From positions 1 to 64,000 of the forward strand of contig JAEKKX010000014.1 of NCBI GenBank assembly GCA_019510125.1: DNA of 64,000 nucleotides, in the 5' to 3' direction. This DNA comes from Lysobacterales bacterium (GTDB lineage: Bacteria > Pseudomonadota > Gammaproteobacteria > Xanthomonadales > Xanthomonadaceae). The number at the start of each line of letters is the position of its first letter. The first letter of the stretch is position 1. Shown here piece after piece: positions 24,243-31,150 of the stretch. A program made the position numbers and the translations under genes. Under the pieces are notes generated by a model. The model saw only the letters and a program-made list of their open reading frames with translations, ran no database searches and was not told the DNA's origin.

Positions 24243-26282
24243 ATGAACACCCGCACACCGCTTTCCCGCTGGCGCAACCTCGGCATCATCGCCCACATCG
24301 ACGCCGGCAAGACCACCCTCACCGAACGCCTGCTGTACGCGTCCGGCGCGATCCATCGCATCGGCGAAGTCCACGACGGCGCCGCGACCACCGACTTTTC
24401 CGAGATCGAACGCCGCCGCGGCATCACCGTCGGCGCCGCCGCCGTGCGCCTGGACTGGGCGCCCGCAGGCGAGGCCGCGCATCGGCTCACGCTCATCGAC
24501 ACGCCGGGCCACATCGACTTCGCGATCGAGGTCGAGCGCTCGCTGCGCGTGCTCGACGGCGCGGTCGCCGTGTTCTCCGCGGTCGACGGCGTGCAGCCGC
24601 AGTCCGAGACCGTGTGGCGGCAGGCCGATCGGCACGGCGTGCCGCGCATCGCCTTCGTCAACAAGATGGACCGGCCCGGCGCCGACTTCGATCGCGTGCT
24701 GGCGCAACTGCGCGACCGGCTCGGCGTCGAACCCTGGGCGCTGGGCGTTCCGCTCGGCGAATCCGGCACGTTCGACGGCTGGGTCGATCTGGTCGAACGC
24801 AGCGTCGTGACGTGGACCGACGACGGCGAGACCGTGCGCCGCCCGTGGACCGACGACGAGGCGTTGCGGCAGCGTGATGCGAGACAACGGCTGATCGAAG
24901 CCGTCGCCGGTCACGACGACGCACTCGCCGAGGCCTGGCTGCACGAACGTCCGATCGACGACGCGCTGCTGCGCGACGCGCTGCGCCGGGCCACGCTCGC
25001 CGGCACCGGGGTGCCGGTGCTCGCCGGTTCGGCGATCCGCAACCGCGGCATCGAGGCGCTGCTCGACGCGATCGTGCGCTACCTGCCGTCGCCGCTGGAT
25101 CGTCCGGCGGTGCGCGCGGAGCGCGACGGCGTCGAGACGCCCCTCGAAGCCGACCCCGCGGGTCCGCTCGCGGCGCTGGTCTTCAAGATCGCGCACCAGG
25201 CGCACGGGCCGGTCGCGTACGTGCGCGTCTACGCGGGCACGCTGCGCGTCGGCGATGCGGTGTGGTGTTCGCACCAGGCGCGCACGCGCCGCATCGGCCG
25301 CCTCGCGGTGGTGCAGGCGGCGCGCACCCACGACGTGCGCGAAGCGCAGGCCGGCGAGATCGTCGCGATCCTCGGCTGGAAGGACGCGGTCGGCGGCGAA
25401 ACGCTGTCCGGCGCGGACGATCGGCTGCTGCTGGAGGCGATCCGCACCCAGCCGCCGGTGCTGTCGCTGCGCCTGTCAGCGGCGGACGGCGACGACCTGA
25501 TCCGGCTCGGCCAGGGACTGGCCGCGCTGGCGCAGGAAGACCCGTCGTTCCGCGTCGGCGCCGATCCCGACACCGGCGAGACGCTGGTGTGGGGCATGGG
25601 CGAGCTGCACCTCGAGACCAAGGTCGAGCGCCTGCGCGACGACTGGCGCGTCGAGGTGCGCACCGGCACGCCGCGCGTGGCCTACCAGGAAACGCCGCGC
25701 GCCGCGGTCCGCGGCGTCGAGGGCAAGGTGGTCAAGCGCAACGGCGGCGTCGGACAGTTCGCGCGCGTGGTCATCGACGTCGCCCCGCGCGACGACGGCG
25801 AGGTCACGTTCGAGGACCGCACCGTCGGCGGCGTGGTGCCCCGGGCGTTCGTGGCGGCGACCGAGCACGGCGTGCGCGCGGCGCTGGCGGAAGGCCCGCG
25901 CGGCCATCCCGTCGTCGGCATCGCGGTGACCCTGGTCGACGGCGAAACGCATGCCGTCGATTCGTCCGACCTCGCGTTCCGGCGCGCGGCGGGCGAGGCG
26001 GTGCGCGCCGCGCTGGCGCAGGTCGGCACCGCGCTGCTGGAGCCGGTGATGGACGTCGCCATCGACACGCCGTCCGCGCACCTGGGCGACGTGATCGGCG
26101 ATCTCCAGCGTCGCCACGGCCGCGTGGCGACGATCGAGGACAAGGGCGCGCGCGCCGATGTTCTCGCGCTGGCGCCGCTGGCGGCGCTCGCCGGCTACGC
26201 GACCGCGCTGCGGTCGCTCACGCAGGGCCGCGCCGAGGCCCGGCTGGCCTTCCACGGCTACGAGGAAGCCCGGCTGCAATGA
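24243..26282 (+). CDS. elongation factor G paralog / EF-G-like translational GTPase
   Basis: [109 protein letters not shown]; no str-operon neighbours. Confidence 0.94.
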
Positions 26283-26329: not shown

Positions 26330-27955
26330 TCACGCATCCTCGATGCTTCCGCCGCCCAGCAGCCGCAGGTTGAGGCCTTCGCGTTCGGACAGCATTTCGT
26401 CCAGCACCGCGTCGAGGTCGGCGGCATCCACTCGGCCCGGGTGGCCCGAGCGGATGGATTGCTGGGCGAGGCGCCGCGCGATTTCCTTGATGAAGGCCGC
26501 GCTCACGCCGTCGGTGCGTGCGACGAGATCGGCGGCCGCCTCCGGGTCGATGTCGAGGCCCCTGCCGTAGAGCCGTAGCAGGCGCTCCCGGCAGTCGCTG
26601 TCGGGCACCGGCACTTCGATGGCGTGGTCGATCCGGCCCGGGCGCTGGATCAGCGCGGTTTCCAGCGCCTGCGGACGGTTGGTGGTCATGATCACGAACA
26701 GATCGACGTCGGATTTCAGGCCGTCCATCTCGTTGAGCAGGCGGTTGAGCATGACTTCGTCGCAGGCCGACGACATCTGGTCGCGCTGTCGCGCGATGAG
26801 GTCGGCGTCCTCGATCACGAGGATCGACGGCGCGAACAGCCGCGCCAGCCGGAAATAGGTGCCGATCATGCCGACCTGCTCCGCCGTGACCAGGAACGTG
26901 GTGTGGTCGCGCAGGCGTTCGGCGAGGTAACGGATCGTATGGGTCTTGCCGGTGCCGGGCGGGCCGTACAGCAGGATGCCCTTGCGCCCGGACTGTCCGA
27001 ACGCCTTCAGCGCCTCGCGCTCCGCGGCGAAACCGATGACGTGCCGTTCCAGCGCCCGCTTCACGGCGTCGGGCAGCACCAGTTCTTCCTCGCCGACCGG
27101 CGTGCGGAAATGCACGGTGAGCGCGTTCGCCGCCATGCCGCGATAACTCTCGCTGGCCTCCAGCGACAGCACCTTGCCGCGATAGCTGCGTCCTTCCGCG
27201 ATGGCGGCTTCGATCGCGTCGAGCATGGCCATCGTGCGCGCGCCCGCGGCTTCGCCCGGCGGCGACAGGATCTCCACGTTCAACTGCGGCGTCTGGGTGA
27301 AGTCGGAACCCGCGTTCACCCACACGGCGAGCGGCACGTCGCCGTCCTCGACCAGCGAGAGCGCATTCGTCGCCAATCGCACGGGGCGGCCTTCGCCGAT
27401 GTCGATGTCCTCGTACTGGATCGCGCCGACCAGCTTGGCGTGATCGCGCTCGGACACCAGCGTCGCCATGTCCGAGGCGTCGTAGCGGTTGCGCCCGTGG
27501 ATGCCCACGCGGCGCGCGCCGGCCGTGAGCGCATCCAGCGCGAGCTGCACCTCGACGCGGAGGTACGCCGGGAACTCGCGCCGGACGATCACCAGGCTGT
27601 CCGGGGACCAGCCACGGAAGGCTTCGTCGATCACCTGGTGGGCCTTGCGCGCGGGGCGCGCCGCGTCCGGCGCTTTGTCCTCGGCGTGGTCCTCGAGCGA
27701 CACCCGCAGGGTCGCGCAGCCGTACTCGGGCGCCAGGCGCATCATCTCGCCATGGATGGTCTCGGCGATGGTCCGCGTCCATGGCCCGATCTTCGTCGCG
27801 CCGTTGCGGTCGATGTGTCGCGCCCACTGTTCGGCGTTGTCCTTCCCGAATCCGATGCAGCGCCGCAGCAGCGCGGCCAGCCCCGCGAACGGCGTGTCCT
27901 CGTCGTCGTGGACGACGAGGAAGACATCCTTCACCCAGCCCGGCGTTTCCTTCAT
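26330..27955 (-). CDS. AAA+ ATPase with ClpS-like N-terminal region
   Basis: GILLYGPPGTGKTHTIRYLAERL, ILVIEDADLIARQRD, FVIMTTNRPQALETALIQRPGRIDHAIEVPVPD; N-term VFLVVHDDEDTPFAGLAALLRRCIGF..AEQWARHIDRNGATKIGPWTRTIAETI..TLRVSLE. Confidence 0.9.
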   Translation of the reverse strand: MKETPGWVKDVFLVVHDDEDTPFAGLAALLRRCIGFGKDNAEQWARHIDRNGATKIGPWTRTIAETIHGEMMRLAPEYGCATLRVSLEDHAEDKAPDAARPARKAHQVIDEAFRGWSPDSLVIVRREFPAYLRVEVQLALDALTAGARRVGIHGRNRYDASDMATLVSERDHAKLVGAIQYEDIDIGEGRPVRLATNALSLVEDGDVPLAVWVNAGSDFTQTPQLNVEILSPPGEAAGARTMAMLDAIEAAIAEGRSYRGKVLSLEASESYRGMAANALTVHFRTPVGEEELVLPDAVKRALERHVIGFAAEREALKAFGQSGRKGILLYGPPGTGKTHTIRYLAERLRDHTTFLVTAEQVGMIGTYFRLARLFAPSILVIEDADLIARQRDQMSSACDEVMLNRLLNEMDGLKSDVDLFVIMTTNRPQALETALIQRPGRIDHAIEVPVPDSDCRERLLRLYGRGLDIDPEAAADLVARTDGVSAAFIKEIARRLAQQSIRSGHPGRVDAADLDAVLDEMLSEREGLNLRLLGGGSIEDA

Positions 27956-29840: not shown

Positions 29841-30113
29841 CTACTTCGCGTAGCCCTTGAGCAGCGCCAGCAGGGCGTCGGCCTCTTGCGCACGTTTCGT
29901 GGCAGAGGTTTCCGCCACCACGTGTTCGAGCAGGTGGCCCGACAGGACCTCCATCATCAGGCCGTGGATCGCCCCCTTCGCGGCGGCGATCTGGACCAGC
30001 ACGTCCACGCATTCGGCGTCGGATTCCAGCGCCGTCTCCAGCGCGGCGACCTGGCCCGCAACGCGGCGGACGCGGGCCAGCAGCTTCTTCTTGTCGCGAT
30101 TCACGTGCGCCAT
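29841..30113 (-). CDS. metal-sensing transcriptional repressor, CsoR/RcnR family
   Basis: RDKKKLLARVRRVAGQVAALETALESDAECVDVLVQIAAAKGAIHGLMMEVLSGHLLEHVV; divergent from DmeF. Confidence 0.93.
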   Translation of the reverse strand: MAHVNRDKKKLLARVRRVAGQVAALETALESDAECVDVLVQIAAAKGAIHGLMMEVLSGHLLEHVVAETSATKRAQEADALLALLKGYAK

Positions 30114-30125
30114 GGCGTCCAAGCG

Positions 30126-30143
30126 TATACCCTGTAGGGGTAT
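30126..30143. promoter_or_regulatory. candidate CsoR/RcnR-type operator
   Basis: ATACCCTGTAGGGGTAT-type inverted repeat between divergent regulator and transporter. Confidence 0.65.
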
Positions 30144-30163
30144 ATTGCCAGCAGGACTTCCCC

Positions 30164-31150
30164 TTGGATCTCGACTTGGATCTCGACGCCATCGCCGACG
30201 CCCGGCGTCACGACCATGCCTTCGACGCAGGCAACCCCATGGCCGAACGCAATGTCCGCCGCGCCATGTGGCTCACGCTGGCGATGATGGTGGTCGAGAT
30301 CGCCGGCGGCTGGTGGGTCAACTCGATGGCCGTGCTGGCCGACGGCTGGCACATGAGCTCGCACGCGCTCGCCCTCGGGCTGGCCGCGTTCGCCTATGCC
30401 TGCGCCCGCCGCTTCGCAGGCGATCGACGCTTCGCCTTCGGCACCTGGAAGATCGAAATTCTCGGCGGCTACACCAGCGCGATCCTGCTCATGGGCGTGG
30501 CGCTGCTGATGGTGTTCCAGTCGGTCGAGCGCCTGTTCCGGCCCAGCCAGATCCACTACGCGCAGGCGATCGCGATCGCGATCGTCGGCCTCGCGGTGAA
30601 CCTGCTCTGCGCATGGTGGCTGCGCGACCATCACGCGCACGATCATCCGCACGGCCACGGCCACGGCCACGCTCATGCCCACGATCACGATCACGATCAC
30701 GATCACCGCGATCACCATGGCCACCATCACGATCTCAACCAGCGCTCGGCCTACCTGCATGTCATCGCCGATGCCGCGACCTCGGTGCTGGCGATCGTGG
30801 CCCTGTTCGGAGGCCTGGTCTTCGGCGCGGCCTGGCTGGATCCGGTGATGGGACTGGTGGGGGCGGGGCTGGTGGCCGTCTGGGCCCGGGGCCTGCTCCG
30901 GGATTCGGTGCGCATCCTGCTGGATGCCCAGATGGACGCGCCCGTGGTCGCCGAAATCCGCGAAGCCATCGAAGGCGGCGCGATCCCGGCGCGCATCAGC
31001 GACCTCCATGTGTGGCAAGTCGGCCGCGGCAAGTTCGCCTGCATGGCCGAAGTCGTCACGTCGTCGCCGGTGGACGCCGAAGCCTTCCATCGCGCGCTCT
31101 CCGTCCACGAAGAGATCGTGCACGTGACGATCGAGGTGCGCTCCGGCTGA
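30164..31150 (+). CDS. dmeF: cation diffusion facilitator (Co/Ni efflux, DmeF-like)
   Basis: WWVNSMAVLADGWHMSSHALALGLAAFAYACARR, FGTWKIEILGGYTSA, His-rich loop HDHPHGHGHGHAHAHDHDHDHDHRDHHGHHH. Confidence 0.92.
   Translation: MDLDLDLDAIADARRHDHAFDAGNPMAERNVRRAMWLTLAMMVVEIAGGWWVNSMAVLADGWHMSSHALALGLAAFAYACARRFAGDRRFAFGTWKIEILGGYTSAILLMGVALLMVFQSVERLFRPSQIHYAQAIAIAIVGLAVNLLCAWWLRDHHAHDHPHGHGHGHAHAHDHDHDHDHRDHHGHHHDLNQRSAYLHVIADAATSVLAIVALFGGLVFGAAWLDPVMGLVGAGLVAVWARGLLRDSVRILLDAQMDAPVVAEIREAIEGGAIPARISDLHVWQVGRGKFACMAEVVTSSPVDAEAFHRALSVHEEIVHVTIEVRSG

What the first reader, a model, noticed from the sequence alone, without database searches (positions are those of the whole stretch)
26330..27955. 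AAA+ ATPase with a ClpS-like N-terminal region
Residues VFLVVHDDEDTPFAGLAALLRRCIGFGKDNAEQWARHIDRNGATKIGPWTRTIAETIHGEMM...GCATLRVSLE resemble ClpS ([42 protein letters not shown]...HPLLCTLE) and precede a full AAA+ module (Walker A GPPGTGKT, Walker B ILVIEDAD). ClpS is normally a separate N-degron adaptor for ClpA. A covalent adaptor-unfoldase fusion without a visible peptidase would be a novel architecture.
Basis: partly seen in the sequence, partly recalled or inferred. Interest (0 to 1): 0.66.

Follow-up and report, generated by a model that had tools for sequence, protein, structure and literature searches.

The report
ClpS adaptor fused to AAA motor
A bacterial ATP-driven protein-remodelling motor carries, in the same protein, a real ClpS domain (normally a separate adaptor that picks substrates for a protease), and relatives in other bacteria carry ClpS plus a ClpX-type zinc finger, which suggests an undescribed family of motors with built-in substrate receptors and no visible protease.

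Summary
The gene is on the minus strand (26330-27955, 541 aa). Residues 11-89 are a ClpS domain: above Pfam's cut-off, a family profile finds essentially only ClpS in the PDB (E 3e-17), and the AlphaFold2 model's best 30 PDB matches are all ClpS (TM up to 0.88). A middle domain and one intact AAA module follow.

The fusion is conserved: three Xanthomonadaceae genomes share it, and 60 of 120 sampled genomes of a Bradyrhizobium-like genus carry this protein, in most copies read as ClpS + ClpX-type C4 zinc finger + middle domain + AAA. Massilia/Collimonas relatives keep only a clear ClpX zinc finger. No literature was found.

Two corrections. The motor is not ClpA-like: its AAA is Cdc48/PAN-type by sequence, and the model is closest to YjoB and Bcs1. 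The N-degron site is altered: E. coli His66 is replaced in all 34 fused domains (acidic in 30), and the ClpA-docking Lys84 is hydrophobic in all 34.

Best reading: a protease-independent remodelling ATPase with a covalent, re-tuned ClpS receptor. Architecture is shown; substrate recognition and remodelling are inferred.

The parts
26330..27955 (-). Whole gene, 541 aa: ClpS domain - linker - middle domain - AAA module; ATG at 27955, stop at 26330-26332
   Evidence: start supported by conservation of MK(E/D)TPGW in L001 and L002
27689..27925 (-). [quoted passage not shown] positions equivalent to the E. coli N-degron site: D17 (N34), D18 (D35), E19 (D36), T21 (T38), F23 (M40), A45 (M62), I48 (V65), D49 (H66), L83 (L99)
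   Evidence: Pfam PF02617, models, Foldseek top matches all ClpS, column counts, pocket residues from PMC12493166
27644..27688 (-). Low-confidence, poorly conserved linker (aa 90-104), in the place where Bradyrhizobium-like members carry a ClpX-type C4 zinc finger
   Evidence: pLDDT below 50 at 91-101; alignment; zinc fingers
27086..27643 (-). Middle domain (aa 105-290), mixed alpha/beta, conserved across the family, no Pfam match; together with the AAA module it aligns to YjoB and Bcs1 in the fold search
26360..27070 (-). Single AAA module with lid (aa 296-532), sequence closest to Cdc48/p97; pore-loop-1 stretch shortened
26942..26965 (-). Walker A GPPGTGKT (aa 331-338)
   Evidence: invariant in the family except its second residue
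26801..26824 (-). Walker B ILVIEDAD (aa 378-385); E382-D383 invariant (ED rather than DE)
26633..26644 (-). RPGR (aa 438-441) with two invariant arginines, the expected arginine fingers
   Evidence: alignment with Cdc48
26351..26374 (-). Conserved C-terminal LNxxLLGG motif (aa 528-535), role unknown

Best explanation
The protein is a ring-forming AAA remodelling ATPase that has taken a Clp substrate adaptor into its own chain. Six or seven ClpS domains, one per subunit, would sit above the ring next to the middle-domain vestibule and capture clients by a terminus or a short motif, using a re-tuned version of the ClpS pocket. ATP cycling would then pull, remodel or release the client, without degradation by a dedicated peptidase. 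Shown here: the ClpS domain and fold, the intact ATPase motifs, the conserved fusion, the altered pocket, the loss of the ClpA-docking lysine and of the long N-terminal tail, and the exchange with or addition of a ClpX-type zinc finger in relatives. Inferred: ring formation, client binding through the ClpS pocket, remodelling without proteolysis.
For: ClpS domain by Pfam, profile and fold. Complete Walker A, Walker B and arginine fingers, invariant in the family. Fusion conserved in three Xanthomonadaceae genomes and in most copies read from a Bradyrhizobium-like genus, where 60 of 120 genomes have the protein. The ClpS part is under purifying selection (dN/dS 0.16-0.26), so it is not debris. 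Relatives carry a different Clp recruiting module at the same end, the ClpX C4 zinc finger (30-47 bits), or both modules with four invariant cysteines, which points to a platform for substrate receptors. Asp35, Thr38 and Leu99 of the pocket are largely kept, and the alpha-amino-contacting positions stay polar or acidic (positions from PMC12493166). The core starts at residue 11, so the roughly 25-residue tail by which free ClpS engages ClpA (PMC9663308) is absent; Lys84 is hydrophobic in 34 of 34. No peptidase domain and no conserved neighbour gene in the Xanthomonadaceae loci. Fold closest to YjoB and Bcs1, neither of which has a peptidase (established knowledge).
Against: No biochemistry. 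His66, which contacts the alpha-amino group in canonical ClpS, is never kept, so the pocket may not bind N-termini at all. Some relatives have neither ClpS nor zinc finger, so the receptor is not essential to the core machine. The pore-loop-1 stretch is shorter than in Cdc48, which weakens simple peptide threading. The AF2 model is a monomer; the ring was not modelled.
Confidence: 0.6

Rival explanations
1. The ClpS domain is no longer a peptide receptor. It serves as a structural lid, oligomerisation aid or autoinhibitory cap of the AAA ring.
For: His66 lost in all 34 fused domains, Met40 and Met62 replaced; the domain evolves faster than the motor (dN/dS 0.16-0.26 against 0.10-0.16); relatives without it exist.
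Against: Asp35, Thr38, Pro39 and Leu99 of the pocket are largely kept. Exchange with the ClpX zinc finger, another recruiting module, fits a receptor better than a structural cap.
Confidence: 0.2
2. The fusion is an unfoldase that delivers clients to a peptidase encoded elsewhere, such as ClpP, making a non-Clp route for N-end-rule degradation.
For: The genome has ClpP. The attached domains come from Clp adaptors and unfoldases.
Against: The AAA is Cdc48/YjoB/Bcs1-like, not of the Hsp100 or ClpX type that docks ClpP. No neighbouring peptidase. Canonical ClpS and a ClpA-type protein are encoded together on another contig.
Confidence: 0.12
3. The protein works as a sequestering competitor or regulator of the canonical ClpS-ClpAP pathway, for instance by holding the same clients.
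For: Every genome checked that has the fusion also has one or two stand-alone ClpS proteins.
Against: Pocket and docking face differ systematically from canonical ClpS, which argues for different clients and no ClpA contact.
Confidence: 0.08

Closest known systems
ClpS (E. coli 1mbu/2wa8, Caulobacter 3dnj), PF02617
   Same: Fold, topology and Pfam membership of residues 11-89; Asp35, Thr38 and Leu99 equivalents
   Different: Fused to an ATPase; no long N-terminal tail; His66 to Asp, Asn34 to Asp, Met40 to Phe, Lys84 to Ile in the window protein
Leptospira ClpS1 (PMC12493166)
   Same: Natural His-to-Asp in the alpha-amino site and Lys84-to-aliphatic at the ClpA face, as here
   Different: Stand-alone protein of 106 residues
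ClpX N-terminal C4 zinc finger, PF06689
   Same: Present in the Massilia/Collimonas relatives and, in degenerate form, in the Bradyrhizobium-like ones
   Different: Absent from the window protein; the attached motor is not ClpX
Bacillus subtilis YjoB (7w42) and mitochondrial Bcs1
   Same: Best PDB matches of the full model, over about 450 alignment columns spanning middle domain and AAA; no peptidase (established knowledge)
   Different: 16-20% identity, TM about 0.5-0.6 by target length; neither carries ClpS or a zinc finger; Bcs1 is a membrane protein
Cdc48/p97 and PAN classical AAA ATPases
   Same: Closest AAA module by sequence (phmmer E 1e-49 to Cdc48; NCBIfam PAN 114 bits)
   Different: One AAA module only (Cdc48 has two); far below the NCBIfam cut-offs; pore-loop-1 stretch shortened
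ClpA/ClpC (Hsp100)
   Same: Functional partner of canonical ClpS
   Different: Two AAA modules and a Clp N-domain, neither found here

Membership tests
ClpS (PF02617) | Sequence above Pfam gathering score | tested here: met
   26.7 and 31.4 bits against 23; relatives up to 57 bits
ClpS (PF02617) | ClpS core fold | tested here: met
   AF2 model of aa 1-104; best 30 PDB matches ClpS, TM by target up to 0.88
ClpS (PF02617) | Alpha-amino-binding residues Asn34, Asp36, His66 (E. coli numbering) | tested here: not met
   D17, E19, D49 in the window protein; His66 kept in 0 of 34, acidic in 30 of 34 (residues from PMC12493166)
ClpS (PF02617) | Specificity pocket (Met40, Val43, Met62, Val65, Leu99) | tested here: inconclusive
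   F23, L26, A45, I48, L83: still hydrophobic but changed
ClpS (PF02617) | ClpA-docking residues Glu79, Glu82, Lys84 | tested here: not met
   T62, E65, I67: Lys84 hydrophobic in 34 of 34, Glu79 rarely kept
ClpS (PF02617) | N-degron binding and delivery | not testable with these tools
   needs peptide binding and degradation assays
Classical AAA ATPase (PF00004) | Walker A, Walker B, arginine fingers | tested here: met
   Pfam 80.9 bits; invariant motifs
ClpA/Hsp100 | Clp N-domain and two AAA modules | tested here: not met
   one AAA module, no Clp_N match
YjoB/Bcs1 group | Middle domain plus AAA with the YjoB/Bcs1 fold | tested here: inconclusive
   top PDB matches, but TM about 0.5-0.6 and large rmsd; no Bcs1_N Pfam match
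ClpX | N-terminal C4 zinc finger | tested here: not met
   absent in the window protein; present in relatives
IetA anti-phage ATPase | NCBIfam cut-off and IetS protease partner | tested here: not met
   74.8 bits against 510; 78.8 bits in PADLOC, AAA region only; no protease noticed among the neighbouring ORFs

The most novel reading that the evidence does not exclude
A family of YjoB/Bcs1-like AAA machines that reads N-terminal (or other) degron-like signals through built-in ClpS and ClpX-type receptors and remodels, rather than degrades, its clients: an N-end rule without proteolysis, with a pocket re-tuned by a His66-to-acid change that could favour different N-termini.
Probability: 0.3. 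Interest if true: 0.8.

Novelty: new variant of a known kind. Interest (0 to 1): 0.62.

Why it matters
ClpS is known as a free adaptor for ClpA/ClpC. A covalent ClpS-motor fusion, with relatives that add or swap a ClpX-type zinc finger, shows that Clp substrate receptors are portable between distantly related AAA motors. The fused form does away with adaptor docking and the N-terminal tail, so it can test directly which steps of adaptor action need the tail and which need only proximity. The family is common in a Bradyrhizobium-like genus (60 of 120 genomes), with some copies inside nif clusters, so knock-outs in culturable strains are feasible.

Tried and rejected
Literature searches for ClpS-AAA or ClpX-zinc-finger-AAA fusions, and for YjoB, gave nothing relevant; the library lacks most subscription papers, so absence is weak evidence. 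Anti-phage defence (IetA) was considered because of PADLOC and NCBIfam hits, and rejected: only the AAA region matches, far below cut-off. A conserved operon partner was sought and not found in the Xanthomonadaceae loci. NifA/sigma-54 upstream motifs were looked for and are not consistent. Phage origin: only distant AAA matches. Recent transfer is not supported by composition: gene GC 69% against window 71%.

Full report
WHAT IS THERE. The gene lies on the minus strand, ATG at 27955 and stop codon at 26330-26332, 541 residues. A longer reading frame from a GTG gives 658 residues, but conservation among the three closest relatives begins at MK(E/D)TPGW, so ATG 27955 is the better start. Pfam finds ClpS (PF02617) at residues 13-79 with 26.7 bits (31.4 for the N-terminus alone, cut-off 23) and AAA (PF00004) at 327-449 with 80.9 bits. 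The gene has the composition of its surroundings (GC 69%, third-position GC 90%).

THE ClpS CALL. It rests on three kinds of test. Relatives from a Bradyrhizobium-like genus score up to 57 bits for ClpS. A profile built from 23 fused N-terminal domains and run against all PDB sequences finds ClpS proteins at E = 3e-17; the only non-ClpS names are three matches at 3e-4 or weaker. [quoted passage not shown] E. coli 1mbu TM 0.83). The full-length model shows the same fold.

THE FUSION IS REAL AND CONSERVED. A Lysobacter metagenome bin (81% identity) and Pseudoxanthomonas yeongjuensis (73%) have the same architecture. It is rare in its order: 2 of 300 sampled genomes, the window's own and the same Pseudoxanthomonas. 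In an alphaproteobacterial genus with 7-10 Mb genomes, 60 of 120 sampled genomes have the protein. Several of these are complete single-contig chromosomes, so assembly error is not the explanation.

RELATIVES CARRY MORE CLP PARTS. In these genomes the usual architecture among the copies read is ClpS, then a CxxC-x(15-18)-CxxC zinc finger, then the middle domain and AAA; all four cysteines are kept in every finger seen. The finger resembles that of ClpX but is degenerate: of eight tested alone, one passes Pfam's cut-off (27.8 bits), three score 15-21 bits and four do not match it. In Massilia, Collimonas and a further metagenome bin the ClpS domain is missing and the finger is a clear ClpX zinc finger (30-47 bits, cut-off 27). 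Rhizobiaceae plasmid members and one betaproteobacterial bin have neither. A maximum-likelihood tree of the middle domain plus AAA needs five changes of architecture; some branches are long, so the order of gains and losses is open. The fused ClpS domains of both lineages share the same unusual substitutions (below), which favours a single origin of the fusion.

THE POCKET. Positions were taken from PMC12493166, which lists the alpha-amino contacts of Caulobacter ClpS (Asn47, Asp49, His79; E. coli Asn34, Asp36, His66) and the specificity pocket. Over 34 fused domains: His66 is never kept and is Glu or Asp in 30; Val33 is His in 31; Asp35 is kept in 33; position 36 is acidic in 28; Asn34 is Asn in 21 and Asp in 9. 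In the window protein the three alpha-amino positions are D17, E19 and D49, and the gatekeeper Met40 is Phe. The rhizobial sequences are related, so these are not 34 independent events, but the three Xanthomonadaceae show a similar pattern from a distant branch. Leptospira ClpS1 has the same His-to-Asp and Lys84-to-aliphatic changes. The ClpA-docking Lys84 is hydrophobic in all 34, and the roughly 25-residue N-terminal tail that E. coli ClpS puts into the ClpA channel (PMC9663308) is missing, because the fold begins at residue 11. Both losses fit a domain that no longer docks on ClpA. In the Xanthomonadaceae the ClpS part has dN/dS 0.16-0.26 against 0.10-0.16 for middle domain and AAA where computable (synonymous sites near saturation), so it is constrained.

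THE MOTOR. It is not a ClpA-like motor. There is one AAA module and no Clp N-domain. By sequence the nearest solved proteins are Cdc48/p97, and NCBIfam places it weakly near PAN (114 bits, cut-off 500). By fold, middle domain plus AAA match B. subtilis YjoB and mitochondrial Bcs1 best, with moderate TM-scores. The Walker B order is E-D, and the stretch holding pore loop 1 is about 7-10 residues shorter than in Cdc48. Walker A, Walker B and both arginine-finger candidates are invariant, so an active ATPase is expected.

CONTEXT. Only the AAA gene itself is shared among the Xanthomonadaceae loci. The genome separately has ClpP and a canonical ClpS (119 bits) about 1 kb from a two-module AAA protein of ClpA type on another contig. 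Six of seven Bradyrhizobium-like or related genomes checked have two stand-alone ClpS proteins besides the fused one; the seventh has the two stand-alone copies and a family member without the domain. Some rhizobial family members sit in or beside nif clusters, but the ClpS + finger copies checked do not, with the possible exception of L084, whose architecture was not read in detail.

MECHANISM. Shown: ClpS fold, fusion, intact ATPase motifs, altered pocket and docking face, zinc-finger relatives, no peptidase domain or conserved neighbour. Inferred from established knowledge of AAA proteins: ring assembly and ATP-driven remodelling. Inferred here: clients are captured by the built-in receptor and remodelled without a dedicated protease. 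I give this 0.6. The main alternative is that the domain has lost peptide binding (0.2).

NOVELTY. Each part is known; the combination is not described in any paper found, and the plasmid records annotate these genes only as ATP-binding protein or AAA family ATPase. The paper library is partial, so priority is not proven. I call it a new variant of a known kind.

Noticed in passing
L027 8001-9600; L028 5983-7359; L030 5983-7350; L037 4845-6518; L084 about 8550: Family members lie in or near nitrogen-fixation genes: between nifK and nifE in Paraburkholderia sprentiae, near nifA in Rhizobium bangladeshense, near nifE-nifN-nifX in two Bradyrhizobium-like genomes.
   Followed up: partly
L028, L029, L030, L039 C-termini: Members without ClpS or zinc finger, mostly on Rhizobiaceae plasmids, end in cysteine-rich tails such as DNDCCGC, SGCCG, SNCCD and DECC.
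   Followed up: no
L035 near 10680 (G759): One copy has an in-frame TGA inside the ClpS domain; the rest of the protein is open.
   Followed up: no
L027 8150-9600: The Paraburkholderia sprentiae copy is split between two reading frames, annotated as a hypothetical protein plus an ATP-binding protein.
   Followed up: no
all 34 fused ClpS domains, E. coli positions 33 and 66: Loss of His66 goes with a histidine at position 33 (31 of 34); whether the two sites touch was not examined.
   Followed up: no
window 24243-26282 (+): An elongation-factor-G-like GTPase reading frame (judged by eye from its N-terminus) runs convergent to the AAA gene.
   Followed up: no
window 29841-31150: A small repressor-like frame (minus) next to a His-rich cation-efflux-like transporter (plus), judged by eye only.
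   Followed up: no
L030 822-3191: TIR-domain and caspase-family genes, annotated in the record, lie next to the family member in Rhizobium bangladeshense.
   Followed up: no
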